From positions 62,001 through 126,000 of the forward strand of contig JAJUHA010000002.1 in assembly GCA_029268145.1 (NCBI GenBank): a DNA stretch of 64,000 bases, read 5' to 3'. Positions 15,941 through 33,313 of the stretch are shown one piece after another. This DNA is from Sphingomonadaceae bacterium. Its GTDB lineage: Bacteria > Pseudomonadota > Alphaproteobacteria > Sphingomonadales > Sphingomonadaceae. The notes below the pieces were generated by a model. The model saw only the letters and a list, made by a program, of their open reading frames with translations. It made no database searches and was not told the DNA's origin. Position 1 is the first letter of the stretch. Each line of letters starts with the position of its first letter. The translations under genes were made by a program, and so were the position numbers.

Positions 15941-16016
15941 TGGGCCTCTAGGTCGCGCGCGGCGAGCGTCGGCTGCCATGCGACGAACGGCGCCCGCCCG
16001 GCTTGCTTGAGGAGAC

Positions 16017-17669
16017 ATGTCCGTGACGCGCGAGGCGATGCCCTATGATCTCGTGATCGTCGGTGGCGGGCCGTCCGGCCTTTCGGCTGCGATCCGCGCC
16101 AAGCAGGCCGCGGCCGGGAAGGGCATCGAGCTTTCGGTCTGCGTGCTCGAGAAGGGCTCGGAGATCGGCGCCCACATCCTCTCGGGCGCCGTCATCGATC
16201 CGAAGGCGCTCGACGAGCTCCTCCCCGACTGGCGGACCGACGGATGTTCGCTCGCGGACTGCCCCGTCACCTCCAACCATCACTGGATCCTGACGAAATC
16301 GGGCAAGACCGAGTTTCCGCACGGGCTGTTGCCGCCCTTCATGCACAACAAGGGCACCTACACCGGCTCGCTCGGCAACCTGTGCCGCTGGCTCGCCCAG
16401 AAGGCGGAAGTGCTCGGGGTCGAGATCTTCCCCGGCTTCGCTGCGGCCGAGGTGCTGTTCCACGAGGATGGGTCGGTCAAGGGCGTGGCGACGGGCGACA
16501 TGGGGGTCCGCCGGGACGGCAGCCACGGGCCAAACTACCAGCCCGGCCTCGAGCTCCACGCGAAATACACGCTGTTCGCCGAAGGCGCGCGCGGGCACCT
16601 CTCGAAGCAGCTCATCGCCCGCTTCGGCCTGCGCGAGGGGAAGAGCCCGCAGGTCTATGGCATCGGCTTCAAGGAGCTTTGGGACGTGCCGGCCGAGAAC
16701 CACGTGCCCGGCACGGTCATCCACACCCAGGGCTGGCCGCTGTCCGATGCCTGGGGCGGCGGCTTCGTCTACCACCAGGCCAACAGCCAGATCGCCGTGG
16801 GCTTCGTGGTCGCCCTCAACTACCGCAACCCCTATCTCTCCCCCTTCGACGAATTCCAGCGCTGGAAGACCCACCCTGCCATCAAGGCGATGCTCACGGG
16901 CGGCCGGCGCGTCGCCTACGGCGCCCGCGCCATCAACGAAGGCGGCTGGCAGGCCGTGCCGAAGCTGGTCTTCCCTGGCGGCGCGCTCATCGGCTGCGCG
17001 GCCGGCTTCGTCAACGTGCCGCGGATCAAGGGCACGCATACCGCCATGAAGACGGGCATGATGGCGGCCGAAGCCGTGGTCGACGCCATCGCCTCCCAGC
17101 GTCAGGGCGATGTGCTCGCGTCCTACCAGGCCGCCTACGAGTCGAGCTGGGTCGAGAAGGAGCTCCGTCTCGTCCGCAACACCGAGCCCTTCGTCGCCAA
17201 GTTCGGCTCGGCGCTCGGCACCCTCTTCGCCGGGGCGACCATGTGGCTCGAGCACTTGGGGATCCGGATGCCCTTCACGCTCCAGCACGAGCCGGATCAC
17301 GAGCAGCTCCAGCCCAAGAGCCATTTCACGCCGATCGACTATCCGAAGCCCGACGGGGTCTACAGCTTCGACAAGCTCTCCAGCGTGTTCCTCTCGAACA
17401 CCAACCACGAGGAGGACCAGCCGGTCCATCTGAAGCTGGCCGATCCGGACCGGCCGATCGCCTACAACCTTCCGCTCTACGACGAGCCGGCGCAGCGCTA
17501 CTGCCCGGCCGGGGTCTATGAGGTGGTCACCACCGAGGATGGCCCGCGCTTCCAGATCAACGCGCAGAACTGCGTCCACTGCAAGACGTGCGACATCAAG
17601 GATCCGACCCAGAACATCACCTGGGTCGCGCCCGAAGGCGGCGGGGGGCCCAACTACCCGAACATGTGA
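16017..17669 (+). CDS. Electron transfer flavoprotein-ubiquinone oxidoreductase
   Basis: Membrane-associated flavoprotein that passes electrons from ETF (fed by acyl-CoA dehydrogenases) to ubiquinone; 550 residues, full length. The FAD-binding fold is DLVIVGGGPSGLSAA, and the C-terminal 4Fe-4S ligands lie in RYCPAGVYE and NCVHCKTCDIKDPTQN, ending with the family tail GGGGPNYPNM. ATG 16017 has GAGGAG just upstream; ATG 16038 is an alternative. It would serve the acyl-CoA dehydrogenases encoded at 32-37 kb. Confidence 0.95.
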   Translation: MSVTREAMPYDLVIVGGGPSGLSAAIRAKQAAAGKGIELSVCVLEKGSEIGAHILSGAVIDPKALDELLPDWRTDGCSLADCPVTSNHHWILTKSGKTEFPHGLLPPFMHNKGTYTGSLGNLCRWLAQKAEVLGVEIFPGFAAAEVLFHEDGSVKGVATGDMGVRRDGSHGPNYQPGLELHAKYTLFAEGARGHLSKQLIARFGLREGKSPQVYGIGFKELWDVPAENHVPGTVIHTQGWPLSDAWGGGFVYHQANSQIAVGFVVALNYRNPYLSPFDEFQRWKTHPAIKAMLTGGRRVAYGARAINEGGWQAVPKLVFPGGALIGCAAGFVNVPRIKGTHTAMKTGMMAAEAVVDAIASQRQGDVLASYQAAYESSWVEKELRLVRNTEPFVAKFGSALGTLFAGATMWLEHLGIRMPFTLQHEPDHEQLQPKSHFTPIDYPKPDGVYSFDKLSSVFLSNTNHEEDQPVHLKLADPDRPIAYNLPLYDEPAQRYCPAGVYEVVTTEDGPRFQINAQNCVHCKTCDIKDPTQNITWVAPEGGGGPNYPNM

Positions 17670-17706
17670 CGCCGCCCGGCGCCCCCGCGCGGCCGGCCCG
17701 CCGGCC

Positions 17707-17951
17707 CTAGGGGCGGGAGGCGGGAAGCGGGTGACTGCCCTGCGTCTTCCAGAGCGAATAGCCCATCCCGGCCGCAAGTATCGCGAAGGTGATGCCGAGG
17801 CTGAGCGCCGGCGGGAACTTCCCTCCGGCGAAGCCGAGCATGTCGGCCAGAAAGATCTTGAGCCCGATGAAGACCAGCAGCACGGCTAGGGCATATTTCA
17901 GATAGTGGAAGCGGTGCACCATTGCCGCCAGCGCGAAATAGAGTGCCCTTA
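17707..17951 (-). pseudogene. TerC-family membrane protein, C-terminal fragment
   Basis: The last 81 codons of a TerC-family (tellurium-resistance C-like) integral membrane protein. Reading the minus strand from the IS junction gives RALYFALAAMVHRFHYLKYA followed by VLLVFIGLKIFLADMLG, the usual TerC C-terminal membrane hairpin. The upstream part of the gene is at 19327-20079 on the far side of the insertion; removing 17952-19326 plus one TA restores one continuous frame. The internal ATG at 17922 could give a 71-residue peptide, but this is probably a dead fragment. Confidence 0.9.
17950..17951. repeat. Target-site duplication (left copy, TA)
   Basis: The TA here and the TA at 19327-19328 flank the inverted repeats. 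Collapsing the two to one regenerates the terC codons for Leu-Gly-Leu-Arg-Ala-Leu, which indicates a 2-bp duplication as known for the IS427 group of the IS5 family. Confidence 0.8.
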
Positions 17952-17967
17952 GGGTCCGGACTCAATC
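17952..17967 (+). repeat. IS left terminal inverted repeat
   Basis: gggtccggactcaatc. It matches the inverted right end (ggttctgaacccaatc) at 12 of 16 positions, with the inner caatc perfectly conserved. Confidence 0.8.
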
Positions 17968-18066
17968 GGCCTCACGGTGGCAGTCGATGTCAAACCAGAG
18001 CGGAGGCCCATCTGAGGTGTGACGCGACGACTTCCGCGCCGCACGGGCTGGTGTTACTCCTTCAGC

Positions 18067-18450
18067 ATGTCCGAGATACCAAGCGTTGGCGCTTTCGCCA
18101 TCGTTCCGAGCAACGACCTTTCGGCCGCGGTCCACTTCTGGCAGCGGCTTGGCTTCTCACGGACGGGCGGCGAAGACCAATACATCATCATGAATGGGTG
18201 GGGTTGCGAGGTTCACCTCACCCAAGCAGGAGACGGCCCTTGGTCCGTCCCGGCGTCCCATAACCCGTTCGGCGTCTTCATCCGCACGCCCGATGTCGAC
18301 GCTATTGCGGCGCGAGTGGACGATCTGATCATCCGCCCCGGCGGCATTCTGCGCCACCGTGAATGGGGCTTATACGAGTGCGGGATTGGTGGTCCGGATG
18401 GCCTGCTCGTTCGTGTCGGCTGGCCTTCCCGACTGATGGAAAAGCCCTGA
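18067..18450 (+). CDS. VOC-family protein, bleomycin-resistance/glyoxalase-like (IS passenger)
   Basis: A 127-residue single VOC domain, the size of bleomycin-binding proteins. N-terminal half: FAIVPSNDLSAAVHFWQRLG, the usual first beta-alpha unit. C-terminal half: REWGLYECGIGGPDGLLVRV, which closely follows the pattern at the end of Ble-type proteins. Such proteins sequester glycopeptide drugs or act as metal-dependent enzymes; sequence alone does not decide. The ATG at 18067 was chosen because the VOC fold starts about nine residues later; the frame is open upstream to 18019. It lies wholly inside the IS, convergent with the transposase, separated from it by a small hairpin. Confidence 0.82.
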   Translation: MSEIPSVGAFAIVPSNDLSAAVHFWQRLGFSRTGGEDQYIIMNGWGCEVHLTQAGDGPWSVPASHNPFGVFIRTPDVDAIAARVDDLIIRPGGILRHREWGLYECGIGGPDGLLVRVGWPSRLMEKP

Positions 18451-18468
18451 TCTCGGGCTGCCCGACCT

Positions 18469-18483
18469 GCCCTGAAGCAGGGC
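18469..18483. terminator. Hairpin between passenger gene and transposase
   Basis: Six-base-pair stem GCCCTG/CAGGGC with an AAG loop, located in the 40-bp gap between the convergent passenger and transposase stops. It lacks a T-tract, so it is at best a weak bidirectional terminator. Confidence 0.35.
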
Positions 18484-18490
18484 GCTTGCA

Positions 18491-19248
18491 TCAGCACCAG
18501 AACGCGATGACGGCAGCCAGGGCCACGGCGGAAGCGAAGTTGTCCGCCAGCTTATCGTAGCGAGTTGCGATGCGGCGGAAGTCCTTCAGCCGACAGAACG
18601 CGGCCTCAATGCGCCAGCGCTCCCGGTAACGCCGTTCGTCGTGCCGGATCGGGCGCCTGCGTGAGCGGGTGCTCGGGATCACGGGCTTGGTGCCGCCTGC
18701 CTTTAGGTCGCGGCGCAGGTGGTTGGCATCATAGCCCCGGTCAGCGAGAAGACGCTTGAAGCGGCCCGGCGCGGCGGCGAGCACGTCGGGCGCGGTCGTT
18801 ACGTCCGAGGCGTTGCCCGGCGTGAGGTGGACCACGGCAGGCCGTCCGAGAACGTCGGTGAGGACGTGAACCTTGGTGGTTTGCCCGCCGCGCGATGGAC
18901 CGATGGCCTGCGCCCGAGCCCCCCTTTGCCGCCGTGCGCCGAGCGGTGCGCCTTGACGTAGGTTGAGTCGAGAGCGGCTGTCTCCGCGACCCAGCCCGCC
19001 TGGGCCAACGCGGCCAGCATGGCGCGCCAGAAGCCTCGGCGAGACCACCTGTTGAAGCGGTTGTAGACCGTCGTGTGGGGGCCGTAGGCGTCCGGGCAGT
19101 CGCGCCAGCGCCCGCCCGTCTTGAGAACGTGGACGATGCCGGAGATCACACGCCGGTCGTCTACCCGCCGCGCACCGGGCTGGTTCTTGGGCATGAACGG
19201 CTCCAGCACCGCCCACTGCTCGTCTGACAGCCAGAATAGGTCCGCCAT
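18491..19248 (-). CDS. IS5-family (IS427-like) transposase, two frames joined by -1 frameshift
   Basis: DDE transposase of about 252 residues, made from two overlapping frames. Frame A starts at ATG 19248 (MADLFWLSDEQWAVLEPF), covers GRWRDCPDAYGPHTTVYNRF and the first catalytic Asp in TAALDSTYVKAHRSA, and alone would stop at 18799. Frame B continues with QAIGPSRGGQTTKVHVLTD, the second Asp in LLADRGYDANHLRRDL and the Glu in RYRERWRIEAAFCRLKDF, ending at 18491. The change of frame coincides with AAAGGGGGG at 18927-18919 (minus strand), the kind of slippery run IS427-group elements use. All three catalytic residues are present, so the element may be active. Confidence 0.88.
18919..18927 (-). 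other. Probable programmed -1 frameshift site in the transposase
   Basis: The minus strand reads AAA GGG GGG in frame A. Slipping back one base after the G run joins HGGKGG to ARAQAIGPSRGG, which restores the IS5-type sequence. Transcriptional slippage on the G run would give the same product. Confidence 0.7.
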
Positions 19249-19267
19249 CGCCGCCTCCGCCCACCGT

Positions 19268-19283
19268 GATGAGGCACCTCATC
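19268..19283. promoter_or_regulatory. Palindrome upstream of the transposase
   Basis: Perfect 7-bp inverted repeat gatgagg-ca-cctcatc, centred about 27 bp before the transposase ATG and inside the right end of the IS. Its position suits an operator or end-proximal binding site; no function is shown. Confidence 0.35.
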
Positions 19284-19310
19284 CCGATCACATCGCTCGC
19301 GCAAGCACCT

Positions 19311-19326
19311 GATTGGGTTCAGAACC
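19311..19326 (-). repeat. IS right terminal inverted repeat
   Basis: On the plus strand gattgggttcagaacc; inverted it is ggttctgaacccaatc. It is followed directly by the TA duplication (19327-19328) and then terC sequence. Confidence 0.8.
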
Positions 19327-20079
19327 TAGGCCAAGGATGGCGAAGATGTTGGAGGTGTAGACGATGAACGGATCGGTCGTGATGGCGAAGATCGCAGGCA
19401 CCGAGTCGATCGCGAACACCACGTCCACGAACTCCACCGTCGCGAGCGCGAGAAACAGCGGCGTCGCCCAGAGCAGCCGGCGGCCGGTCGTCGGGTCGGG
19501 CAGGGTCACGAAGAAGCGATTGCCGTGCATCTCTTCGGTGACCCGGATGTGGCCGCGCAGCCAGCGAAGGGCAACCGAGCTGCCGATGTCGTGAGTTTCG
19601 CCCGCCATGGTCCACATCCGGATCCCCGTGAAGACCAGGAAGGCGGCAAAGATGTAGAGGATCCAGCCCCACTCCGAGATGATCGCCGCGCCGAAGCCGA
19701 TCATCACGCCTCGCAGCACGATCACCCCCAGGATGCCCCAGAACAGCACGCGATGCTGATAGAGCCGCGGAATGGCGAAATGGAAGAAGATCATCGCGAT
19801 GACGAACACATTGTCCATCGCGAGGCTCTTCTCGACCACGAAGCCGGTCAGATACTCGATGGCGGATTGCTGGCCGAGCTGCCACCAGACGAAGCCGCCG
19901 AAGGCAAGGCCGAGGACGATGTAGCCCGCCGAGAGCCGCAGGCTTTCCCTGACGCCGATTTCGTGATCCGTGCGGTGGAGGACGCCGAGGTCAAGGGCGA
20001 GCAGCGCGACCACGACGGCGAGAAAGCTCAGCCAGAGCCACAGCGGCGTTCCCAGCCACGCGGTGAGCAGGAGATCCAT
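19327..20079 (-). pseudogene. TerC-family membrane protein, N-terminal fragment
   Basis: The first 251 codons of a TerC-family inner-membrane protein, linked in relatives to metal-ion (Mn2+) export and tellurite resistance. The ATG at 20079 has an upstream AGAGGG and begins MDLLLTAWLGTPLWLWLSFL. The metal-site motifs FVVEKSLAMDNVFVIAMIF and FVDVVFAIDSVPAIFAITTD are intact. The frame enters the IS after TSNIFAILGL and ends at 19288 with ten foreign residues. Loss of the last membrane hairpin (at 17707-17951) very likely abolishes function. The intact protein would have had about 331 residues. Confidence 0.92.
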
Positions 20080-20202
20080 GAACTGCCACCCTCTGCCATC
20101 CGGGGCCGCCCGGGCGGCCCGCACCTCAAGTCCGACATCACCGCGCAACCGCGCGGCCAGAGGGGCCCGGACCCCCGAAATCTGGCACCGGTCCGGGAGA
20201 TT

Positions 20203-21075
20203 TCAAGCCCTGGCAGGGAGATTGCGCCCGGCCTGCTTCAGGGCCGGCTGGCGCAGGGCCCAGCGGACGAGCGCACCCATGCCGGTCGCGCCGGCGCGCA
20301 CCAGCGGCGCGGCCGGGCCCGGCGCGCGCAGTCCGTGCATCTCCCGGGCCCATGCCGGGAGCAGATCGACGGCCGCCTCGATCAGGAGCCGGTGCGCGGG
20401 CGCAAGGGCCGGGGAAGGGGGCGGGGCGGCGAGCAGCAGGCCACAGACCTCGCGCGTGCGCAGGTCCGCGCGGAGCTGCGGCCGCATCCGCCGGACGAGC
20501 GCCTCCGCCCCGGCCTTCGTCTCGGGCACCGGTAGAGCGCCGAGCCGGCGCGCCACTTCGGCCATGCCGGCCATGTAGCGATCCTGCCGGGAAGGAGGCA
20601 TGAGGGGGTCCCGATAGCGCCGCCACGCCTTCAGGAAGGCGAGCGCCTCGACGGCGCCGACGAATGCCAGCGTCTCCGGCTCGTCGGCGCGATAAGGCGT
20701 GCCATCGGCAAGGTGTCCCTCGATGCGCGCGTGGATCCGCCGCACCCGCGCGATCGCGGCCTCCGCCTGCTCGCGCGGGCCGAAGGTGGTGATGGCGATG
20801 AAGGCCGCGGTGCGCCGCAGCCTCCCGCCCATGTCCCGCCGGAAGTCCGAATGATCCCAGACACCTGCCATTGCCTTCGGATGCAGCATCTGAACGAGCA
20901 GCGAGGCGATGCCGCCGATCATCATGGTGGTGACATCGGCGTGCACGTCGAAGCAGGGCGAGCCGGCGGCAAGCAGCCGCTGGTCGAGCGGTGCCGGGAC
21001 CACCGCGGGTCGGGCGCTTCCCGGCTCGAGGAAGGGCCGGCGGATCTCGCGGGCAAGGGCGTGCCGGAGGCTCAT
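20203..21075 (-). CDS. MpaB-like oxygenase family protein (DUF2236)
   Basis: A protein of 290 residues from the family that includes the latex-clearing/MpaB-type heme oxygenases. Visible family features are the N-terminal PCFDVHADVTTMMIGGIASL followed by LLVQMLHPKAMAGVWDHS, and TTFGPREQAEAAIARVRRIH. I took ATG 21075 because the family starts close to it; the frame is open further upstream. It is encoded on the same strand as the following adh and sppA genes but separated from adh by 70 bp. The substrate is unknown. Confidence 0.82.
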   Translation of the reverse strand: MSLRHALAREIRRPFLEPGSARPAVVPAPLDQRLLAAGSPCFDVHADVTTMMIGGIASLLVQMLHPKAMAGVWDHSDFRRDMGGRLRRTAAFIAITTFGPREQAEAAIARVRRIHARIEGHLADGTPYRADEPETLAFVGAVEALAFLKAWRRYRDPLMPPSRQDRYMAGMAEVARRLGALPVPETKAGAEALVRRMRPQLRADLRTREVCGLLLAAPPPSPALAPAHRLLIEAAVDLLPAWAREMHGLRAPGPAAPLVRAGATGMGALVRWALRQPALKQAGRNLPARA

Positions 21076-21145
21076 GCCCCGCAGGATTCCGGCGGACGCT
21101 GCGCCCGGGAGGGGCCGGGGCGCGCGGGGGCCAGGCGGCACGCCA

Positions 21146-22255
21146 TCAGAACAGGATGACCGAGCGGATGCTCGCGCCCGCGCGCATCAGGTCGAAGGCC
21201 TCGTTGATCCGCTCGAGCGGCAGGCGGTGGGTGATCATCGGGTCGATCTCGATGCGCCCTTCCATGTACCAGTCGACGATCCTCGGCGTGTCGGTGCGGC
21301 CGCGCGCGCCACCGAAGGCCGTGCCCTTCCACACCCGCCCGGTCACCAGCTGGAAGGGGCGCGTGGCGATTTCCTTGCCGGCCTCGGCGACTCCGATGAT
21401 GATGGACTGGCCCCAGCCGCGGTGGCAGCTCTCGAGCGCCTGGCGCATCACCTCGGTGTTGCCGGTGCAGTCGAAGCTGTGGTCGGCCCCGCCGTCGGTC
21501 AGCGCCACCAGATGGGCGACGAGATCGCCCTCGACCTCGCGCGGGTTGACGAAGTCGGTCATGCCAAAGCGGCGGCCCCACGCCTCCTTCGCGGGATTGA
21601 TGTCCACGCCGACGATCCGCCCCGCCCCGACCATCCGCGCCGCCTGGACGACATTGAGGCCGATGCCACCGAGCCCGAAGACGACCACCGTGTCCCCGGC
21701 CGCGACTCTGGCCGTGTTGACGACGGCGCCGACTCCGGTGGTGACGCCGCAGCCGATGTAGCAGGCGGTGTCGAAGGGCGCGTCGCGGCGGATCTTCGCC
21801 ACCGCGATCTCGGGGAGCACGATGTGGTTGGCGAAGGTCGAGCAGCCCATGTAGTGGAAGAGGAGTTCGCCACGGTGGCGGAAGCGGCTCGTGCCGTCGG
21901 GCATCAGCCCCTTGCCCTGGGTGGCCCGGATGGCGGTGCACAGGTTGGTCTTGCGGCTGAGGCAGCTTTTGCACTGCCGGCATTCGGGCGTGTAGAGCGG
22001 AATCACATGGTCGCCGGGGGCCACGCTTGTCACGCCCGCGCCCACCTCCTGCACCACGCCTGCGCCCTCGTGCCCGAGGATGCAGGGGAAGTTCGCTTCG
22101 CTGTCGAGCCCGTCGAGCGTGTAGGCGTCGGTGTGGCACACGCCGGTTGCCTTCACTTCCACGAGCACTTCACCGGCCCTCGGTCCCTCGGGCTCGACCT
22201 CGAGAATTTCGAGCGGCCGCCGGGGGCCGAACGCAACCGCCGCCCGGGTCTTCAC
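21146..22255 (-). CDS. frmA: S-(hydroxymethyl)glutathione dehydrogenase / class III alcohol dehydrogenase
   Basis: Zinc- and NAD-dependent oxidation of S-hydroxymethylglutathione in formaldehyde detoxification; also S-nitrosoglutathione reduction. It has 369 residues, the family length. The catalytic zinc ligands begin in [10 protein letters not shown] and continue with GHEGAGVV; the structural zinc cysteines are in [17 protein letters not shown]; the Rossmann motif is [13 protein letters not shown]. The start is GTG 22255, overlapping the sppA stop (GTGA). No S-formylglutathione hydrolase gene is adjacent. Confidence 0.95.
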
Positions 22256-24123
22256 CGCGGACGTCCCCCGGGGAGGGCCGCGAGCAGCCGCTCGAGCCCG
22301 CGCTGCTGGGCGATGGTGGCGGGGCGGAACCCGGCGCAGGCCACGCAGGCCGCCTGCACCGTCGGCCCGCGCAGCGCCTCGAGCGCCGTCGAAAGCGCGC
22401 TGGCGGCGCGCAGCCGTTCGGCAAGCACCAGCCGCCCGAGCGCGTCCGGCGCGCTCCGGGAGCGGACGAGGCTGCCCTCGGCAAGGAGCGATTCGTACCA
22501 CGGCCTGGGCTGGCGGAACGGCCGGACCTCCGGCGTGCCGGCAATGCCGCCAAGCCTGCCGGCATCGGCCACGGCCGCATCGAGGCCGCCAAGGCCATCG
22601 ACGAGCTTCAGTTCGAGCGCCCGGGCCCCGGACCACACCCGCCCCTCGGCAATGGGCTCGACCTGGGCGGGCTCCAGCCGGCGTGCCTCGGCCACCAGCC
22701 GGATGAAGCGGCGGTACACATCCTCCACTCCGGTCTGGATGAGGTCGCGCACCGGCTCGTTCAGCCCGCCGATCAGGTCGGGCTGGCGCGAATAGGGGGT
22801 CGTCCCCACGCCGTCGGCCGTGATCCCGAGGTCGGCGAGGGTGCGCCCGAAGGTGGGGATGAGGCCGAAGACGCCGATCGAGCCCGTGACGGTCGAAGGC
22901 TCCGCCCAGATCCGCTCGGCGCCAGTCGCGATCCAGTAGCCGCCCGAGGCCGCGACCGGGCCCATGCTGGCCACCACCGGCTTGCCCTTCGCCCGCGCCG
23001 CCATGAGCGCATCGCGGATGACATCCGATGCCGTTGCCGAGCCGCCCGGCGAATCGATCCGCAGCACGATGGCCTTGACGCGGGGATCGGCTGCCGCCTG
23101 CTCGACGAGATCGGCGACGCTGTCCCCGCCGGACTGGCCCTCGGGCGCCTCGCCATCGACGATGTTGCCCGCCGCATGCACCAGCGCGACCACGTCTCCT
23201 CGTGCCCCCTCCTCGCCCTGGGAGGCGAGATAGGCCGAGAGGCCGATGCCGTTCAGCGTGTCGGAACGTTCCTCCTCCTCGCCCGCGCCCACCACTTCGC
23301 GCACCCGGGCAACGAAGGCGAGCTCCGAGCCGATCCGGTTCACGAAGCCCATGTCCCGGGCGAGCGTCGCGAGATCGCCATTGAGGCCCCTGACCCGCTC
23401 CGGCATGCTCTCGACTGCGGCCTTCACGTCGAACCCGGGCCGCGCCCGGCGGATCCCGTCCTGGTAGGCCGCCCACAGATCCTCGGCCAGCAGCTGGTCG
23501 GCGGCGCGCGCCTCGGGCGAGGCTTCGCTCCGCGTGAAGGGTTCGATCGCGCTCTTGAAGGTGCCCACGCGAAACACCTCGACATCCACCTTGAGCTTGT
23601 CGAGCGCGCCCTTGAGATAGAGCCCGGTCCCGCCCGGGCCGGTCAGGAACACCCCGCCATTGGGGTTGATCCAGGCCTCGTCGGCGTGCGCGGCCAGGAA
23701 GAAGCCGTCGTCGGCATAGGCGGTCGCATAGGCGAAGACCGGCTTCTTCGCTGCCTTGAACCTGAGGATCGCCTTGCCGACGGCCTCGAGATTGGCCAGC
23801 CCGCCGCCGAGGAAGCTGTCGAGGTCGAGCACCAGCGCCTTCACCCGCGCGTCCTTCGCGGCGAGGTCGATGGCGCGGACGACATCGCGGGCCTCGGTCT
23901 CGGCCAGCCGGCTGCCGTCGAGCGCGGCGAGCGCGGACACCGGCGTCGCCTGGTCGACGAGCGTGCCTTCGAGGCTCACCACCAGCGCTCCGCCATCGGG
24001 AACGCTGACCGCCGGTGCGCGCAGGCCGAGCACCCCCCACAGCGCCACGAAGAACAGCAGCAGGAAGAGGAGGACGAGCGCGTCCTTCACCCCCACCAGG
24101 AACCGCCAGAGTCTCCCGATCAC
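22252..24123 (-). CDS. sppA: Signal peptide peptidase SppA (67-kDa type)
   Basis: Membrane-bound serine protease that degrades cleaved signal peptides; 623 residues with two tandem ClpP-like S49 domains, the long (67K) type. It has an N-terminal membrane anchor (about residues 14-34), the catalytic Lys190 in [11 protein letters not shown] in the first half and Ser393 in [11 protein letters not shown] in the second half, as in the Escherichia coli Lys/Ser dyad. It is the first gene of the sppA-adh pair. Confidence 0.93.
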
Positions 24124-24277
24124 CTGCGTCTCCGTCCGTCGCCTGCCGCCGTTCCTACCGGTGCCGGGCCTGCGCGGCTAGGGGGGCGCTGCCCCTACGC
24201 GGCATCGCGCGGCACGGCGGGAATAGCGCGCAGGGGTCAGGCGTTCTTCCGGCATCGACCAGATGGGAGATGCCCCG

Positions 24278-25369
24278 ATGTCCAGCCTCGACACCTCCTC
24301 CTTCCCGTTCCGTCGGCGCGCCGGCGGCGACCGGCTGTCCTCGCCGCGCCGGGCCTTCGCGACGCGGCGGGTCCGCATGTCGGATGCCGCGCGCCTGCTG
24401 CGCGATCCGGCGCACCGGCCGGCGGCCGGAGATCTGCTGCTCGCCCGCGTCGACCGCCTGGGCCACCACCAGCGGCTGGAGAATCTCCACGGCCGGCGCG
24501 AGCAGATGAACGTCGGTGACGAGATCATCGTCGCCTATGGCAACCGCTATGCGCCCGACCAGTTCGAGGCGACCGTGCCGTCGAGCCTCGGCCCCTGCCA
24601 CCTCGTCGCGGGCGGCGGCATTGCCGCGCTGGTGCGCTGTCAGCACGCGGCAGTGCGGCCTGCCACCCGCATCACGCCGGTCGGCCTCCTCCTCGACCAG
24701 AATGGCGAGGTGCTGAACCTCGCCCGCTACGCTCTCCCCGATCCGGCGCCGGTGCGCAGCCTGCCCCTTGCCTTCGCCGTCGTCGGCAGCTCGATGAACG
24801 CCGGCAAGACGACGACGGCCGCCGGCCTCGTGCGCGGCCTCGCCCGGGCCGGGCTCAGGGTGGGGGCGGCCAAGCTCACCGGCACGGGCTCGGGCGGCGA
24901 CCTGTGGACCATGCGCGACGCCGGCGCTGCGGTGGCGCTCGACTTCACCGACGCCGGCCACGCCTCGACCTATCTCGTCGGCCGGGACGAGCTTGACCGC
25001 ATCGGCCAGACATTGCTCGTGCAGCTCGCCCGCGAGGAGGTGGATGTCGCCATCGTCGAGATCGCCGATGGCCTGTTCCAGCGCGAGACCGCGATGATGC
25101 TCGAGATCGCCCGCTCGCGCGAATGGTTCGAGGGCGTCCTCTTCGCGGCAGGGGATGCGATGGCGGCCGTCCACGGCGTCGAGTGGCTCCGCCGGCGGGG
25201 CCACCCGCTTCTCGCCGTCTCCGGGCTCCTCAGCACGTCGCCGCTGGCCGCGCGCGAAGCCGAAGGCGAGACGGGCGTGCCGGTGCTCGGTCTCGGCGAC
25301 CTGACCGATCCGGTCGCCGCCACCAAGCTCGCTTTCTCGGGTCCGTCGGTTCGGGAGCTGGTCGCATGA
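24278..25369 (+). CDS. Conserved P-loop protein, function unknown (MobB/dethiobiotin-synthetase-like fold)
   Basis: A protein of 363 residues. The first ~150 residues look beta-rich (AGDLLLARVDRLGHHQRLEN, VGDEIIVAYGNRYAPDQFEA); the rest is a P-loop domain with Walker A VVGSSMNAGKTTTAAGLVRG (K177), then RVGAAKLTGTGSGGDLW, a pattern seen in the SIMIBI class (dethiobiotin synthetase, MobB). VAIVEIADGLFQRET could hold the Walker B acid. The start ATG 24278 is fixed by GGGAG 8 nt upstream. It is the first gene of a four-gene operon and may energise or regulate the NBD-less ABC domain that overlaps it, which is inference. Confidence 0.7.
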   Translation: MSSLDTSSFPFRRRAGGDRLSSPRRAFATRRVRMSDAARLLRDPAHRPAAGDLLLARVDRLGHHQRLENLHGRREQMNVGDEIIVAYGNRYAPDQFEATVPSSLGPCHLVAGGGIAALVRCQHAAVRPATRITPVGLLLDQNGEVLNLARYALPDPAPVRSLPLAFAVVGSSMNAGKTTTAAGLVRGLARAGLRVGAAKLTGTGSGGDLWTMRDAGAAVALDFTDAGHASTYLVGRDELDRIGQTLLVQLAREEVDVAIVEIADGLFQRETAMMLEIARSREWFEGVLFAAGDAMAAVHGVEWLRRRGHPLLAVSGLLSTSPLAAREAEGETGVPVLGLGDLTDPVAATKLAFSGPSVRELVA

Positions 25370-26316
25370 GCCTGCCCGCGCTCTTCGGTCCCGGGCGGCG
25401 GGTGCTGGCGATCGCGCTGGCCGGCTCGGGCCTGGCCCAGGCCGGCGGCGCGGCGGTCGCTGCCGCGGCCGCCAGCGCGGCACTCGCCGACCCGGCGTGT
25501 GGCGCGCCCCTCGTCGGGGCGATGGTCCTTGGCGGCGGCTTTCTCGCCGGCGCCTTCTGGCTCGAGCGGCGGATTGGCGAGGGGCTCGCCCAGTCCCTGG
25601 TTGCGGACCTTCGGCAGCGGCTCTTCGGGGCCAGCATCGCGGTTGCCCACCGGCTCGACCGGGGCCGGCTTGCAGTGCCGTTCGTCGGCGACCTCGCTGC
25701 CGTGCGCAACTGGGCTGCGCGCGGGCCAATCCGGCTGCTGGGCGCGGGCCTCGCCTTCGCCGGTGGCATGGCGGCCCTCGCCGCGCTCCACCCCTCGCTC
25801 TGGCCGAGCGCGGTGCCCCTGGGGCTCGCGCCGCTCGCTGCCGCGCCCGTCGGCCGGCGCCTGCGCCGCACGATCAGCCGGCAGCGGGACATCCGCGGCG
25901 GCATGACGCGCTTCGTCCTGCGCAGGCTCGAGCGCCACGGCCGGCAGCCCGACGCCGGCGCGGCCCGCGCGCGGGATGCCGAGGCGCTGGCCGAACGCTC
26001 GAGGCGTCTTGCCGAGATCTCGGTGGCCCGCGCCGCCATGGCGGCCGATCTCGAGGCGCTTGCCGTGCTTGCGGGCGGACTTGCCGGGGCCCTCGCGGTC
26101 TTCGGGACCATCGTCGGCGCCGGCAGCCCGGCAGGGGCTGCCGGCGCGCTCGCGCTGGTCGGCTTCGTCGCCGCCCGCCTGCGCGACATGGCGCGCGCCG
26201 AACACGCCCGCATCGCCGGCGAGGTTGCGCTGCGACGCATCGCCGCACGGCTCGCCGAAGCGCGCGCCGCCAGCATCGCACCCGGCGGCCCGGCGGAGGT
26301 CTCCCATGCCGAATGA
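25366..26316 (+). CDS. ABC exporter-type membrane domain without ATPase domain
   Basis: A protein of 316 residues that follows the pattern of a type-I ABC exporter membrane domain: two N-terminal hydrophobic segments, then a coupling-helix region (GDLAAVRNWAARGPIRLLGA), a central hairpin (LAFAGGMAALAALHP to VPLGLAPLAAAPVGRRLRR), a long basic cytoplasmic helix and a final hairpin (LAVLAGGLAGALAVFGTIV). No Walker A or signature motif follows; the frame ends. The only ATPase-like partner nearby is the overlapping upstream P-loop protein. The start overlaps that gene by ATGA. Confidence 0.7.
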   Translation: MSLPALFGPGRRVLAIALAGSGLAQAGGAAVAAAAASAALADPACGAPLVGAMVLGGGFLAGAFWLERRIGEGLAQSLVADLRQRLFGASIAVAHRLDRGRLAVPFVGDLAAVRNWAARGPIRLLGAGLAFAGGMAALAALHPSLWPSAVPLGLAPLAAAPVGRRLRRTISRQRDIRGGMTRFVLRRLERHGRQPDAGAARARDAEALAERSRRLAEISVARAAMAADLEALAVLAGGLAGALAVFGTIVGAGSPAGAAGALALVGFVAARLRDMARAEHARIAGEVALRRIAARLAEARAASIAPGGPAEVSHAE

Positions 26317-27181
26317 TGCCGCCATCCGCTTCCTGCCGGCTGCGAGCCCCGTGGAGCCGGATGCCTTCTTCCGTCCGGGAGCAGCGGACGCACCCGTGGT
26401 GGTCAGCGTGCATGGCATCTCGCGCAACGCCGCCGAGCATGCGCTACGGCTCGCGCGCGTGGCGGCCTTCGACGGGCTTTCGATCCTGTGCCCGCTGTTC
26501 GAGAAGGCACGGTTCGGCCGCTACCAGCAGCTCCACCCCGGCGCGTCCGGCGGCCGTGCCGACGAGGGCCTGCTGCGCCTGCTCGACCGGCTCGCGGCAG
26601 AAGGGCGGATCCCCGACCGGCCGATCCTGCTGACCGGCTTCTCCGGTGGCGCCCAGTTCGCCCATCGCTTCGCGGCCTCCTGGCCCGACCGCGTGGCCCG
26701 GCTCGCCCCTGTCGCTGCCGGCTGGTATCTCTGGCCCGACCCGGCGCTGGCCTGGCCCGAAGGCCTGGCCAGCCCGCCAGCCGGTCTTCCGCCCCCTGAC
26801 GTCCGGCGCCTGCTGGCGATCCCGACCAGGGTCATCTGCGGCACCAGGGATCGCCGCAGCCGGGACGGGGCGTTCCGCTCCTCGCCCGACCTCGACGCAC
26901 GGCAGGGCCGCAGCCGCATCGGCCGCGCTCGCCGCTGGGTGGCCGCGATGCAGGATGCGGCGCGCGCGGCCGGTGTCGCAGCCGACATCGCCTTCGTCCC
27001 CCTGCCGGGTGCCGGCCATGACTTCGGCGCGGCGATGATGCACTTCGGGCTCGGGGAAGCCGTGGCCTTCGGCCTGCTCGACAACGCTGCGGCGCCATCG
27101 CGCGGCGGCGGCTGCTTGCACCGCGTGGGAGAGGCTGTCAGGGCCGATCAGGGCTCGGAAACGGAGGGGAAAGTTTCATGA
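26306..27181 (+). CDS. Alpha/beta hydrolase-fold protein
   Basis: A protein of 291 residues with an alpha/beta hydrolase core: oxyanion strand VVVSVHGISRNAAEHALRLA, nucleophile elbow LLTGFSGGAQFAHRFA (Ser in GFSGG), and a late His in LPGAGHDFGAAM. It resembles esterase/poly-hydroxyalkanoate depolymerase-like hydrolases, but no substrate can be named. There is no clear signal peptide. It overlaps the ABC-like gene by 11 bp and the porin gene by ATGA, so all four genes should be translated from one message. Confidence 0.78.
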   Translation: MPNDAAIRFLPAASPVEPDAFFRPGAADAPVVVSVHGISRNAAEHALRLARVAAFDGLSILCPLFEKARFGRYQQLHPGASGGRADEGLLRLLDRLAAEGRIPDRPILLTGFSGGAQFAHRFAASWPDRVARLAPVAAGWYLWPDPALAWPEGLASPPAGLPPPDVRRLLAIPTRVICGTRDRRSRDGAFRSSPDLDARQGRSRIGRARRWVAAMQDAARAAGVAADIAFVPLPGAGHDFGAAMMHFGLGEAVAFGLLDNAAAPSRGGGCLHRVGEAVRADQGSETEGKVS

Positions 27182-28233
27182 AACGAGCAGGATACATGGC
27201 CTTCGGGCTGTTTCTTTCAATCTCGTCAAGTCTGCCGGCAGCGCCGCTTCCCGAGTTCGGACCTGTGCGCCTCCAGGTGCGGGGGATCGATCTTCGCCTC
27301 GGCGGCGGGGCGTCGCTGCAGGGGGGTGCCTTCCGCGTGGACGGCCGTGGCGCCGGCAGCCCGGAGGGCAATGTCGATCTCTTCGGCGAGGCCAATGCCG
27401 AGTGGACCTCGCCGGGCGGGATCCTCGTCGGGTTCAACGTCAAGGCCTCCAACCGCGAGCGCGAGACCGAGCAACTGGAGACCGGCGAGGCCTATCTCTT
27501 CTTCGCCTCCGAGCGTGGACGGGTGGAGATCGGCCGCCAGGACGGCCCTGCCGACACGCTCTCCTTCCATGCGCCCGTGATCGCGCTTGGCCAGATCCGC
27601 GGCGACAGCTCCCGCTACGCCGGAACCCAGGCGCTGCTTTCGCCGCTCGACACGCAGGACGCGTTCAAGCTCATCTACCTCTCCCCGCCCATTCGCGGCT
27701 TCCGCGGCGGCGTCAGCTGGTCGCCGAAGGTGACGCGCAACCCCGATGCCCCCGATCCCACGGCCCGAACGAAGCTCAGGAATGCGGTCGAACTCGGGCT
27801 CCAGTATCAGCAGCCGGTGGGCCAGTGGATCCTCGGCGCGAGCGGCACCTGGGCGCGCGGCAACGCCGATCCCGAGACTGGCCGCGCCGACCTCAACTCC
27901 TGGAGCGTGGGGGGCGAGGCGCGGCGGGGTCCGCTGCGGATTGGCGCGGCCTATGTCGACCGGGGCGACAGCAACCGCCTCGACCGCGGGTTCGACCAGA
28001 GCGAGGTGAACGCCGGCGTTGCCTGGGTGACGGAGCGCTGGGGCCTCGCTGCCTCGGCCGCGCGGCAGAAGGCGAGCACCCGCACCGATCGCAGCGTGGC
28101 GGCCGGCGGCTTCTTCCGCCTGACCCGCAACATCGAGTTCCGGGCCGATGTGAACCGCTTCGACCTGACCCGGCCGGACCGGCCGCGTCGCAAGGGGGTC
28201 GTCGGCGTCGCCGAGATCGAGTTCAGCTTCTGA
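27178..28233 (+). CDS. Outer-membrane porin (Gram-negative porin type)
   Basis: A protein of 351 residues with a signal peptide ending near SSLPAAP and alternating beta strands through to a C-terminal Phe (EIEFSF), the outer-membrane insertion signal. GEAYLFFASERGRVEIGRQD and RYAGTQALLSPLDTQ match general porins of the Rhodobacter/Sphingomonas kind. GGAGGGGAAAG lies just upstream of the ATG. As the last gene of the four-gene unit it suggests that the operon moves or processes a small molecule across the envelope. A hairpin follows the stop. Confidence 0.82.
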   Translation: MKRAGYMAFGLFLSISSSLPAAPLPEFGPVRLQVRGIDLRLGGGASLQGGAFRVDGRGAGSPEGNVDLFGEANAEWTSPGGILVGFNVKASNRERETEQLETGEAYLFFASERGRVEIGRQDGPADTLSFHAPVIALGQIRGDSSRYAGTQALLSPLDTQDAFKLIYLSPPIRGFRGGVSWSPKVTRNPDAPDPTARTKLRNAVELGLQYQQPVGQWILGASGTWARGNADPETGRADLNSWSVGGEARRGPLRIGAAYVDRGDSNRLDRGFDQSEVNAGVAWVTERWGLAASAARQKASTRTDRSVAAGGFFRLTRNIEFRADVNRFDLTRPDRPRRKGVVGVAEIEFSF

Positions 28234-28248
28234 ACCAATGGGAGAGCC

Positions 28249-28272
28249 GCCGCGCGGAACGGCCCGCGCGGC
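28249..28272. terminator. Bidirectional hairpin between porin and anti-sigma genes
   Basis: Perfect 9-bp stem GCCGCGCGG/CCGCGCGGC with a 6-nt loop in the 44-bp gap between the convergent porin and anti-sigma genes. There is no T-tract, as is common in very GC-rich genomes. Confidence 0.55.
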
Positions 28273-28277
28273 AGCGC

Positions 28278-29075
28278 CTAGTTGAGCGCAGCAAGCGCGC
28301 GGGCCTCCGCATCGGCGTCGAGCGGTGCGCCGGCGATCCGCGCTGCAACCGCTGCGGCGACTGGCCCATCGTCCGGCCCGGAGGCGGTCGCATAGCCGCC
28401 GGTCGCCGCCGGACGCGCGGCGAGCGCCTCGACGCGCCAGCCATCCTTCCCATGGCAGAGGAGCGCATCAACGGCACCGTCTGCGCGCCTGACGACGAGC
28501 TGCCGGCACAGCGTGCCGGCGCCGTCGCGGAAGCTCAGCACGGGCGAAAGGGTCGCGCCCCCGGACTTGGCCGAGCCCCCGCTCGGGGTGGTCGAGACGA
28601 GCCGCGCCACTTCCGGGTCCACGACCGGCGCGCCCGCGGCGAGGCGGAAGCCGGCCTCCACCCCGCCTCCGGGCGCAAGCCCCGCGGGATCGAACCGGCC
28701 GCCGATCACGAGGCCGAGCGCGAGCGAGGCCGCCATGGCCATCCACCCGGCCCAGCGCGGCGCCTGCCGGCGGGCCCGGGCTTCGGCAAGCGGGATTACC
28801 TGCGCAGCTGGCTGCGCCGTCGCGGGTGGAGAGGCGCTCGGGGCCGCCGGCCCGGCGGCGGCCGCGCGGAGCAGGGCGGTCAGCCGGTCCGGCACGGGTT
28901 CGGCCAGGACCGAATCGAAGGCCGCGCCGATGCGCGCGCCAAGCGCTCGCAGCTCCGCCTCGCGGCGGGCGAGTTCCGGATCGGCCGCGATCGCCGCGGC
29001 CACGCGCGCGGCCTCGGCCGGCGGCAGCTCGCCATCGACATAGGCCATGAGATCGGTTTCGGTCACGGCGGTCAT
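28278..29075 (-). CDS. Membrane-anchored anti-sigma factor
   Basis: A protein of 265 residues. The N-terminal ~60 residues (DLMAYVDGELPPAEAARVAA) follow the anti-sigma pattern of RsrA/ChrR-like cytoplasmic domains, without the zinc-binding HxxxCxxC. One membrane segment follows (WAGWMAMAASLALGLVIGG, about residue 110), then a periplasmic domain with the two cysteines in GTLCRQLVV and DALLCHGKDGW, which could form a disulfide. Its ATG overlaps the sigma-factor stop, the usual sigma/anti-sigma arrangement. Confidence 0.82.
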   Translation of the reverse strand: MTAVTETDLMAYVDGELPPAEAARVAAAIAADPELARREAELRALGARIGAAFDSVLAEPVPDRLTALLRAAAAGPAAPSASPPATAQPAAQVIPLAEARARRQAPRWAGWMAMAASLALGLVIGGRFDPAGLAPGGGVEAGFRLAAGAPVVDPEVARLVSTTPSGGSAKSGGATLSPVLSFRDGAGTLCRQLVVRRADGAVDALLCHGKDGWRVEALAARPAATGGYATASGPDDGPVAAAVAARIAGAPLDADAEARALAALN

Positions 29076-29578
29076 GCTGCCTCCAGGGGGCCGAGCCACT
29101 GCTGCAGCCGGGCCCTTGCCCGGCTGAGCCGGCTCATGATCGTGCCCACCGGCACGTCGAGGATCTCGGCGGCTTCGGCGTAGCTGTGGCCCTCCACGAG
29201 CACCAGCGCAACGACGCTGCGCTGCTCGTCGGCGAGCCGGTCGATGGCCGCGCGCACCCGCTCGCCCTCGGAGAGGGCCTCGAGCTCCGCGACGAGGTCG
29301 CCGGCGGGCGGTTCGGCAATGTCGGCGATGTCGTCGTGCGGCAGGCGATTGCGCGCTGCGCGCCGCTCGTCGAGCCAGAGATTGTGGGCGATCCGGATCA
29401 TCCAGCGATCCAGTCGCGTGCCGTCCCGGAAGCTGTCCAGGTTGCGCAGCGCCCGTTCGATCGTCGCCTGCGCCAGGTCGTCGGCGGCATCCGGGCTGTT
29501 CGCCAGCGAGCGGCAGAAGCGGCGCAGCCGGGGCAGCTGCTCCGCCATCTCCTGCACCAGCCGGTTCCGCCGATCCAT
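29072..29578 (-). CDS. ECF RNA polymerase sigma factor
   Basis: Alternative sigma factor of 168 residues with region 2 (LPRLRRFCRSLANSPDAADD through LDRWMIRIAHNLWLDERRA) and region 4 (SVVALVLVEGHSYAEAAEIL then DVPVGTIMSRLSRARARL). I chose ATG 29578 because GAAGGGG lies 6 nt upstream; the ATG at 29593 is also in frame. It is divergent from the subtilase gene, with 141 bp between the starts, so that protease may be a target of this sigma factor. Confidence 0.9.
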   Translation of the reverse strand: MDRRNRLVQEMAEQLPRLRRFCRSLANSPDAADDLAQATIERALRNLDSFRDGTRLDRWMIRIAHNLWLDERRAARNRLPHDDIADIAEPPAGDLVAELEALSEGERVRAAIDRLADEQRSVVALVLVEGHSYAEAAEILDVPVGTIMSRLSRARARLQQWLGPLEAA

Positions 29579-29719
29579 GCCATGCCCCTTCAACGTTCCA
29601 GGACGTCCCGCTATTCCCTGGCCCGTTGCCCCGGACCCGGAGGGCGCGCTCTCTCGCCTTGGCGGACGCGCCTTCCGCTGTTAAGGGATTTTTCACGGCA
29701 GTCCCTGCTTTCTGGTGCC

Positions 29720-31399
29720 ATGCGCGCGTTCGGTCTCGCCCTTCTTCTCCGCCTGCTGCCGTGCGCCCTTCCGCTTCTGATCGCGCCGGTGCTGGAGCAG
29801 CCGGCGGCGGCGCAGGAAGCGGAGGACCCGGACGACCCTGATGAAGAGGACCCGGACGAGCCGGACACGCCGGACGAGCCGGACACTCCCGATGAGCCCG
29901 ACACGCCGGACGAGCCGGATGCCCCGGACGAGCCCGACACGCCGGACGAGCCGGATGCCCCGGACGAGCCCGGCGACGACGGCCCCGGCGACGATGGCCC
30001 CGGCGATGACGGACCTGGCGACGATGGCCCCGGCGACGATGGCCCTGGCGACGACGGCCCCGGCGATGACGGACCCGGCGACGATGGCCCCGGCGACGAT
30101 GGCCCCGGCGATGACGGACCTGGCGACGATGGCCCCGGTGACGATGGTCCGGGCGATGACGGACCTGGCGACGATGGTCCCGGCGACGATGACCGACGGG
30201 ATGGATCCGGTGACGGCGACCCCGACGACGACGACGAACGGCCCGAGCCCGAGGAGCGCGATGGGGAGGGCTCGGTCTGGGGCGACGCCGAGATCGACGC
30301 GGACTCGCCCCTTGTCTGGGTGCCGGAGGAGAGCTGGTCCGAGCGCAGCAGCCGCGACCGGGCCGAAGGGATCCGCACCGATGCCGATGGCTATCGCTAC
30401 CGTGACCGCGAATTCGTGGCGATCGGGCTCGATCGGGCGACGCTCGCGGCACTGTCCCGCGAAGGGTTTCGCCAGATTGCCGTCGAGCGGCTTGCCGCCT
30501 CCGGCCTGACGCTTCACCTCCTCAAGGGCCCGGACCGGCTGGACGGCGAAGCCGGCCTCGAGCGCCTGGTCGCGCTTGCCGCCAACGCGCCGGTCGCCTT
30601 CAACCATCTCTTCGACCGCAAGTCCGTCACCATGCGGCGTGGCGTGCGGGTCAGCCTGCCCGAGCGGCCGGGATGCGGCTGCCGGCTGGGCCTGGTCGAC
30701 ACCGGCGTCGCCGAGCGGTCGCCAAGTCTCGCCCATGTCCGCTTTGCCTCGCGCGCCTTCAACGGCAGCGCGCCAGCGCCGGACCTGCACGGAACCGCGG
30801 TGGCCTCGCTCGTCGGCGGCACACGGCGGCACCCGGCGCGTGACACGCGCCTGCTGGTTGCCGATGTCTTCGCCGGCCCGCGCGCCACGGCGGGCTCGGC
30901 CTTCGCGGTTGCCCGCGCCATCGACTGGCTGGCGCGCGAGAAGGTCGCCGTCATCAACCTGAGCCTTGCCGGGCCACCCAACCGGGCGGTCGAGCGGGTC
31001 ATCCAGAGCGTCTCGGCCCTCGGGCATGTGGTGGTCGCCGCCGCCGGCAACGAGGGCCCGGCAGCCCCGCCCGCCTTCCCGGCCGCCTACCCTGAGGTCG
31101 TCGCCGTCACGGCCGTTGCCCGCGATGGCCAGCCCTACCGCTATTCCAATCGCGGGCCCCACATCCGATTCGCCGCCCCCGGGGTCGATGTGCCGGTCCT
31201 CGACGCATCAGGCACGCCGCGGCTGCTGTCCGGCACCTCCTTTGCTGCCCCCATCGTCGCCGCGCGGATCGCCCGCGACCTCGAGGCGCCCGACCGGCTG
31301 CGCGCGCGCCAGGTGCTCGCCGGCCTCGAGAAGGCCGCGCGCGACCTGGGCCCGGCGGGCCGGGACCCGGTGTTCGGCCATGGCCTTGTGGAGCCCTGA
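29720..31399 (+). CDS. Subtilisin-like (S8) serine peptidase with Asp/Pro/Gly repeat region
   Basis: Exported protease of 559 residues: signal peptide (LALLLRLLPCALPLLIAP), a low-complexity acidic region (about residues 35-175) made of DEPDTP-type hexapeptides and then 14 GDDGP pentapeptides, a linker, and a C-terminal S8 domain with Asp327 (LVDTGVA), His357 (DLHGTAVASLVGG) and Ser507 (LSGTSFAAP). VVVAAAGNEGP holds the oxyanion Asn. The acidic segment may bind Ca2+ or act as a spacer in the envelope. ATG 29720 begins the signal peptide. A gene for another exported protein follows 1 bp after the stop. Confidence 0.87.
   Translation: MRAFGLALLLRLLPCALPLLIAPVLEQPAAAQEAEDPDDPDEEDPDEPDTPDEPDTPDEPDTPDEPDAPDEPDTPDEPDAPDEPGDDGPGDDGPGDDGPGDDGPGDDGPGDDGPGDDGPGDDGPGDDGPGDDGPGDDGPGDDGPGDDGPGDDGPGDDDRRDGSGDGDPDDDDERPEPEERDGEGSVWGDAEIDADSPLVWVPEESWSERSSRDRAEGIRTDADGYRYRDREFVAIGLDRATLAALSREGFRQIAVERLAASGLTLHLLKGPDRLDGEAGLERLVALAANAPVAFNHLFDRKSVTMRRGVRVSLPERPGCGCRLGLVDTGVAERSPSLAHVRFASRAFNGSAPAPDLHGTAVASLVGGTRRHPARDTRLLVADVFAGPRATAGSAFAVARAIDWLAREKVAVINLSLAGPPNRAVERVIQSVSALGHVVVAAAGNEGPAAPPAFPAAYPEVVAVTAVARDGQPYRYSNRGPHIRFAAPGVDVPVLDASGTPRLLSGTSFAAPIVAARIARDLEAPDRLRARQVLAGLEKAARDLGPAGRDPVFGHGLVEP
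29832..29970 (+). repeat. Degenerate 18-nt repeat encoding DEPDTP/DEPDAP
   Basis: Repeats of about 18 nt encode Pro-Asp-Glu-Pro-Asp-(Thr/Ala), about seven units, directly ahead of the 15-nt array. Synonymous changes between units show that the protein repeat is maintained. Confidence 0.8.
29972..30181 (+). repeat. 15-nt tandem repeat, 14 units, encoding GDDGP
   Basis: Exactly 210 nt made of fourteen 15-nt units (ggcgacgatggcccc and variants ending ggacct, ggaccc or ggtccg). Every unit keeps Gly-Asp-Asp-Gly-Pro while third positions vary. The repeat opens several reading frames on both strands, which are not genes. Confidence 0.92.
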
Positions 31400-31400
31400 G

Positions 31401-32066
31401 ATGCGCGCCCGGCTGACCCTGGCGAGTGCCCTCCTGCTCGGCCTGGCCCCGGCACCTGCCCTCGCGTCGCTGCCGTCCTACCAGCCGGGGGACAGCTATG
31501 TCTGGGATGACGGGCGGGTCGAGCGGGTGGTCCGCGTCGAGGGCGAGCGGATCCACTGGGGCGGGCTTGGGTCCGGCACCTATGTGCGGCATCGCAACAT
31601 CGTCGTCCCCATCCTCCAGTGGTCCGCGCGCGGCGAGGAAGGCCGGCGCCGGATCCATGGCGATCCCGACCGGCTCTGGCCGCTCGACAGGCCGAGGTCG
31701 GTCCGCTTCAGGGTCGTGACCGAGAGCCGCAGCCGGCCCGACCGGCCCTGGGTGCGTTCGACTGCGCTCTGGCGCTGCGAGACGGGCAGGCCGGCGTGGG
31801 TCGATGTGCCAGCGGGCCGGTTCGAGGCCGTGCCCATCCGCTGCGACCGCTACTCGGCCACCACCATGCGGCCGATCGAGCGCATCAGCCTCGATTACGC
31901 GCCCGAACTTGGGCATCCGGTGCGGCGGTCGCTCACCAGCTACGGGAGGGCCACGACCCGCACGACGCTGCTGGCGGCGACGCTCCACGGGCCCAAGGCA
32001 ACGCCGGAGCGGCTGCGCGCGCTCGCCCGCAAGGCGCGGCGAACCCCGTCCCGCGCCAACACCTGA
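31401..32066 (+). CDS. Exported protein of unknown function
   Basis: A protein of 221 residues with a signal peptide (MRARLTLASALLLGLAPAPA then LASLP). The mature part is rich in Arg and Trp and has no membrane segment; it has the repetitive strands LPSYQPGDSYVWDDGRVERV and GGLGSGTYVRHRNIVVPILQ. Two cysteines (LWRCETG, PIRCDRY) may pair. It starts 1 bp after the protease stop, so the two are likely co-expressed and may be a protease/substrate or protease/accessory pair. I do not recognise the family. Confidence 0.72.
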   Translation: MRARLTLASALLLGLAPAPALASLPSYQPGDSYVWDDGRVERVVRVEGERIHWGGLGSGTYVRHRNIVVPILQWSARGEEGRRRIHGDPDRLWPLDRPRSVRFRVVTESRSRPDRPWVRSTALWRCETGRPAWVDVPAGRFEAVPIRCDRYSATTMRPIERISLDYAPELGHPVRRSLTSYGRATTRTTLLAATLHGPKATPERLRALARKARRTPSRANT

Positions 32067-32067
32067 A

Positions 32068-32092
32068 CCGCGGCAGGCCCCGGGGCCTTGCG
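32068..32092. terminator. GC-rich inverted repeat between convergent genes
   Basis: The 27-bp gap between convergent genes is dominated by aggccccggggcct, flanked by near-complementary ccgc/gcgg. It can fold as a hairpin, but with little or no loop and no T-tract. Confidence 0.3.
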
Positions 32093-32093
32093 G

Positions 32094-33236: not shown

Positions 33237-33313
33237 GGGAAACCTCCTTCGCAGCCCCGTTGCCGCCGCCCGCGCGCTGGCGCAACCCTGCCGGATGTGG
33301 GCGGTTTGCCGCG

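What the first reader, a model, noticed from the sequence alone, without database searches (positions are those of the whole stretch)
17707..20079. IS5-family element carrying a VOC (bleomycin-resistance-like) passenger gene has split a terC gene
Seen: the minus-strand reading frame of a TerC protein stops at Leu-Gly-Leu at 19327 and resumes with Arg-Ala-Leu-Tyr at 17949. Removing 17952-19326 and one TA gives CTT GGC CTA AGG GCA CTC, the exact expected coding sequence. The removed segment has 16-bp inverted repeats, a frameshifted DDE transposase and a convergent 127-residue VOC gene. Passenger genes are well known in a few IS families but not, to my knowledge, common in IS427-type elements. 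The insertion both disables a metal-ion transporter and brings in a possible drug- or metabolite-binding protein.
Basis: partly seen in the sequence, partly recalled or inferred. Interest (0 to 1): 0.8.

Follow-up and report, generated by a model that had tools for sequence, protein, structure and literature searches.

The report
Jumping gene carrying an extra gene
A small jumping DNA element that normally carries only its own transposase has, in this bacterium, an extra enzyme-like gene packed just inside one end, and it sits in and breaks a metal-transport gene; elements with passenger genes are known, but this element type and this gene make an unusual case.

Summary
A 1,375-bp IS5-family (IS427-like) element at 17952-19326, flanked by TA, splits terC; joining the flanks restores a frame that is unbroken in 14 of 14 intact homologues aligned. 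The transposase is not a damaged gene: 19 of 20 relatives compared share the slippery run and 16 of 20 the out-of-frame length, so its frameshift is most likely the normal programmed one. Of 85 readable copies (this one included), 78 have the left terminal repeat directly at the transposase stop codon. Here 522 bp with a VOC-family gene lie between them; without it the element would be 853 bp, the usual length. The outer left end is a true IS end: left ends of six relatives match it at 13-15 of 16 bases and no other of 808 TA sites in the window above 11. The VOC gene is widespread, with no such IS beside it in the 80 related loci examined; it is absent from four congeners, and no second copy of the combined element was found. 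So this looks like a one-off captured passenger, not a fixed part of this IS. Elements in two other genera hold an unrelated passenger at the same place. Movement as one unit is likely, not proven. Known kind, new variant, modest interest.

The parts
17707..17951 (-). 3' part of the split terC gene (includes one TA of the duplication, 17950-17951)
17952..17967 (+). left terminal inverted repeat, 16 bp
   Evidence: same as left ends of relatives
17968..18489 (+). 522-bp insert absent from related elements; ATC stands at both junctions (17965-17967, 18490-18492)
18067..18450 (+). VOC (glyoxalase/bleomycin-resistance superfamily) passenger gene, 127 aa
18491..19248 (-). IS5-family DDE transposase in two overlapping frames (-1 frameshift at AAAGGGGGG), 758 nt
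19311..19326 (-). right terminal inverted repeat, 16 bp
19327..20079 (-). 5' part of the split terC gene (TerC/Alx family; includes the other TA, 19327-19328)
20123..20178 (-). terC RNA motif (Rfam RF03067) upstream of terC

Best explanation
A single autonomous IS427-like insertion sequence, close to ISMpo7, acquired a 522-bp piece of DNA holding a complete VOC gene between its transposase stop codon and its left terminal repeat (shown by comparison with relatives). The composite then moved as one unit into a TA inside terC, duplicating TA and truncating TerC after residue 251 (insertion and truncation shown; movement as one unit inferred). The insert sits where it spoils neither the transposase reading frame nor the end that the transposase must bind, so the element may still be mobile (inferred). 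How the DNA was captured is not known: illegitimate insertion at the stop/repeat junction, or deletion between two flanking copies, both fit. The VOC gene probably keeps its ancestral small-molecule role (inferred).
For: Empty site restores TerC, unbroken in 14 of 14 intact homologues aligned. ISMpo7 copies, 78% identical, have TA and the left repeat directly at the transposase stop. Survey of 85 copies with a readable C-terminus, this one included: 78 have a recognisable end within about 25 bp of the stop, 3 have another kind of end not checked further (second copies in L006 and L152; L154), 1 has no end found (L142), 3 have extra DNA: this one, L003, L004 (partly by eye: one search's loose pattern scored L003 as standard and missed L108 and L189, corrected from the printed letters). 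Length without insert 853 bp, against 832-865 bp for IS427-group elements in the table passages of PMC3281130. Left ends of six relatives match at 13-15 of 16 here, at most 11 at any other TA site. VOC is absent from 4 of 4 congeners (one is 82% complete) and its third-position GC is 71% against 87% (terC) and 92% (ETF-QO), which suggests import. All 57 columns invariant in 25 other VOC proteins are kept.
Against: Only one copy of the combined element was found, so movement as a unit is not shown. The TA duplication would look the same if VOC DNA had entered an IS already sitting in terC. Overall GC does not mark the insert as foreign to its surroundings: VOC 62%, terC 63%. Absence of VOC from congeners could also be loss. 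The donor of the insert was not found; the nearest VOC protein is 88% identical.
Confidence: 0.72

Rival explanations
1. Two steps in place: a plain IS427-like element first entered terC, and the VOC fragment was inserted into the resident IS afterwards, so the VOC gene was never mobile with it.
For: Single copy in the genome; no related element with the VOC gene in the collections searched; the 80 VOC relatives examined have no related transposase beside them.
Against: Congeners lack the VOC gene (0 of 4), so a separate import would also be likely. The insert hits the few bases that spare both transposase and repeat, as expected if the element had to stay functional (inference). A different passenger at the same place lies in elements of two other genera.
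Confidence: 0.2
2. Remnant of a composite transposon: VOC lay between two IS427-like copies, and deletions removed all of one copy but its outer left repeat and the inner repeat of the other.
For: One end is of the left type and the other of the right type, as two direct copies would leave. It is also one possible route to the best explanation, so the odds overlap.
Against: Needs two deletions with exact endpoints; only one transposase lies in the element.
Confidence: 0.12
3. Coincidence or artefact: the true IS ends inside 18451-19326 and the VOC gene is a chance neighbour.
For: Relatives end at the stop codon.
Against: No left repeat at the stop in this copy (6 of 16); a left repeat with TA at 17950, flush with the terC break.
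Confidence: 0.03

Closest known systems
ISMpo7 (IS5 family; Methylobacterium/Methylorubrum plasmids CP029174.1, NC_011758.1)
   Same: 78% identical DNA over the transposase part, same 758-nt two-frame transposase, left end 13 of 16 alike, TA flanks
   Different: 850 bp between the TA flanks (one search prints 852, counting one TA), no passenger; left repeat abuts the stop codon
IS427 group of the IS5 family as described for Paracoccus (PMC3281130; passages and section 17 seen)
   Same: 832-865 bp, repeats of 13-21 bp and 2-bp duplications in all but one element of the passages; two overlapping frames with a frameshift motif in some
   Different: that section names IS21 and IS66 families as the typical ones with extra ORFs, not IS427
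Transporter IS, IS copies with passenger genes (PMC3129680; passages seen)
   Same: genes unrelated to transposition inside the ends of a simple IS
L003 (G125) and L004 (G032), unnamed family members
   Same: IS427-like elements of about 1.12 kb with a different small ORF (76-residue stretch 72% identical between them) at the same place, between transposase stop and left repeat
   Different: ORF unrelated to VOC, no Pfam family above cut-off, same direction as the transposase

Membership tests
IS5 family, IS427-like | IS5-type DDE transposase | tested here: met
   PF13340, PF01609; NF033580 above cut-off for both halves
IS5 family, IS427-like | terminal inverted repeats and 2-bp TA duplication | tested here: met
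   12 of 16 identical, TA on both sides
IS5 family, IS427-like | two overlapping frames joined by frameshift | tested here: met
   slip run in 19 of 20 relatives, CDS length 755 or 758 in 16 of 20 (L010, L108, L110, L111 differ in length, L110 in the run); frameshifting itself not assayed
IS5 family, IS427-like | length near 830-870 bp | tested here: not met
   1,375 bp; 853 bp if the insert is left out
IS5 family, IS427-like | assignment in ISfinder | not testable with these tools
   ISfinder is not held; group name rests on PMC3281130 features and the ISMpo7 label in plasmid records
Transporter IS (IS with passenger gene) | gene unrelated to transposition between the ends | tested here: met
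   VOC gene inside the pair of ends
Transporter IS (IS with passenger gene) | passenger moves with the element (several copies) | tested here: inconclusive
   one copy only
Composite transposon | two IS copies flanking the gene | tested here: not met
   one transposase in the element
VOC superfamily | Glyoxalase/bleomycin-resistance domain | tested here: met
   PF00903 23.8 bits, cut-off 20.6; structure model weak, mean pLDDT 60.9
VOC superfamily | bleomycin binding or glyoxalase activity | not testable with these tools
   no NCBIfam family, no solved relative by sequence
TerC/Alx family | family profile | tested here: met
   TIGR03718 317 bits, cut-off 246; terC RNA upstream

The most novel reading that the evidence does not exclude
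In IS427-like elements the transposase stop codon overlaps the inner edge of the left repeat, and this spot is a recurrent gene-capture slot: two unrelated passengers (VOC here; a small ORF of unknown function in two other genera) were taken up at the same position, so some of the smallest IS may act as gene carriers.
Probability: 0.3. Interest if true: 0.5.

Novelty: new variant of a known kind. Interest (0 to 1): 0.35.

Why it matters
Passenger genes blur the line between insertion sequences and transposons. A passenger in one of the smallest IS types, at a place where stop codon and terminal repeat overlap, gives a simple case for how an IS becomes a gene carrier. The event also removes the last quarter of a TerC metal-homeostasis protein. 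No medical meaning follows from the VOC superfamily name.

Tried and rejected
Rejected: transposase as pseudogene (slip run in 19 of 20 relatives). Integron-cassette origin of the insert (no cassette-type core site seen by eye; motif recalled, not scanned by a tool). VOC as fixed part of this IS (the best 80 of 101 VOC loci show no related transposase, and no left-end pattern with up to 1 mismatch). VOC on phages or viruses (none; junction pattern 0 in viral contigs). VOC on plasmids: 4 records, at most 43% identical; insert DNA none. Plasmids with the element's DNA: 149 records, 0 with one place covering 80%.

Led nowhere: a donor of the 522 bp was not found; the VOC structure model was too weak and no fold search was made; G292's family held only 2 genomes.

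Full report
Observation. The element lies at 17952-19326 with TA on both sides (17950-17951, 19327-19328). Its ends match at 12 of 16 positions. Joining the terC flanks restores a 331-residue frame, and the joint Ile-Leu-Gly-Leu|Arg-Ala-Leu-Tyr is the same in 14 of 14 intact homologues aligned. These are the 14 best places after the own one, where 57 of 199 family genomes, own included, matched. TerC is found in none of the 4 other congeners searched, so the empty site rests on other genera. None of the 14 terC loci (about 3.7 kb each) holds the VOC gene or the transposase. The broken TerC ends after residue 251 and 12 foreign residues. A terC RNA motif lies upstream (20123-20178, minus, which searched 16000-34000 only).

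The outer left end. Left ends read from six relative copies match 17952-17967 at 13 of 16 (L005, L006, L022, L023, L024) and 15 of 16 (L004), and no other TA site of the 809 in the window exceeds 11. The 16-mer at the stop codon, where relatives have their repeat, matches the left repeat at 6 of 16. A pattern allowing 2 mismatches finds two places in the genome, both IS ends.

Transposase. It is 758 nt in two frames. Both halves pass NF033580, IS5 family. Of 20 relatives printed with both halves, 16 have a CDS of 755 or 758 nt (both out of frame by one) and 19 have the A/G slip run; L010, L108, L110 and L111 differ in length and L110 lacks the run. PMC3281130 (section 17 read) reports two overlapping frames with a frameshift motif for some IS427-group elements. 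The frameshift is therefore most likely normal; it was not assayed.

Where relatives end. ISMpo7 copies (78% identical) and L024 show TA plus the left repeat directly at the stop codon. I surveyed distinct copies among loci L001-L024, L105-L111, L128-L182 and L185-L198, and among L201-L210. Of 85 with a readable C-terminus, this one included, 78 have the end within about 25 bp of the stop, 3 have another end type not checked further, 1 has none found, and 3 have extra DNA. Left out: rows whose C-terminus was not matched (9, 2), one at a contig end (L163), and loci with no match to the second frame. The counts are partly by eye, because the pattern used was loose (it misplaced L003 and missed L108 and L189). 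Several copies in one genome count separately.

The insert. In the window 522 bp (17968-18489) separate left repeat and stop, with ATC at both junctions. Because the stop codon and the repeat share these bases, keeping both working demands such a duplication, so it is not evidence for a special mechanism (inference). Without the insert the element is 853 bp. GC is 63% in the insert, the same as in terC, against 71% in the whole window; third-position GC of VOC is 71%, against 87% in terC and 92% in the neighbouring ETF-QO gene.

The VOC gene. It reaches the Pfam cut-off narrowly and has no NCBIfam family or solved relative by sequence. A scan of genome contigs found 101 relatives. The 80 kept are 72-88% identical, in Alpha-, Beta- and Gammaproteobacteria and in bins labelled Acidobacteria, Phycisphaerae and others. 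None of the 80 has a related transposase in the fetched DNA (up to 4 kb a side, less at contig ends). Homology to the insert mostly stops near the gene's borders. All 57 columns invariant in 25 other VOC proteins are kept here. The gene is absent from 4 of 4 congeners. It was thus most likely an ordinary gene before capture and still looks intact.

A second passenger. L003 and L004, from two genera, carry roughly 270 bp at the same place, with a small ORF homologous between them (76-residue stretch 72% identical). L004 has TA at both ends; L003's right end is degenerate. A relative of that ORF in G044 (L183) has no such transposase or end around it. In 199 family genomes the ORF occurs in 3.

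Verdict. An IS with a passenger gene, in an IS group for which I saw no such report (open PMC papers only, most seen as listings). Structure is well supported. Movement as a unit is likely, not shown. The capture route is unknown.

Noticed in passing
L003 1206-2326 and L004 1218-2347: Two IS427-like elements in other genera carry a different small ORF between transposase stop and left repeat.
   Followed up: partly
window 20123-20178: terC RNA motif (RF03067) on the minus strand upstream of the broken terC.
   Followed up: no
L190 636-4181; L193 612-4196: On a Sphingomonas and a Sinorhizobium plasmid, an IS427-like copy lies between two convergent IS701-family genes at nearly the same spacing.
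   Followed up: no
L002 (G000:C6:63768-64504): Second, 70% identical IS427-like copy in the same genome, without passenger.
   Followed up: partly
window 31582: A TA site inside an ORF matches the right repeat at 12 of 16; taken as chance.
   Followed up: yes
L025-L104: The VOC protein is strikingly conserved (mean column identity 84% in 26 proteins) across distant bacteria.
   Followed up: partly
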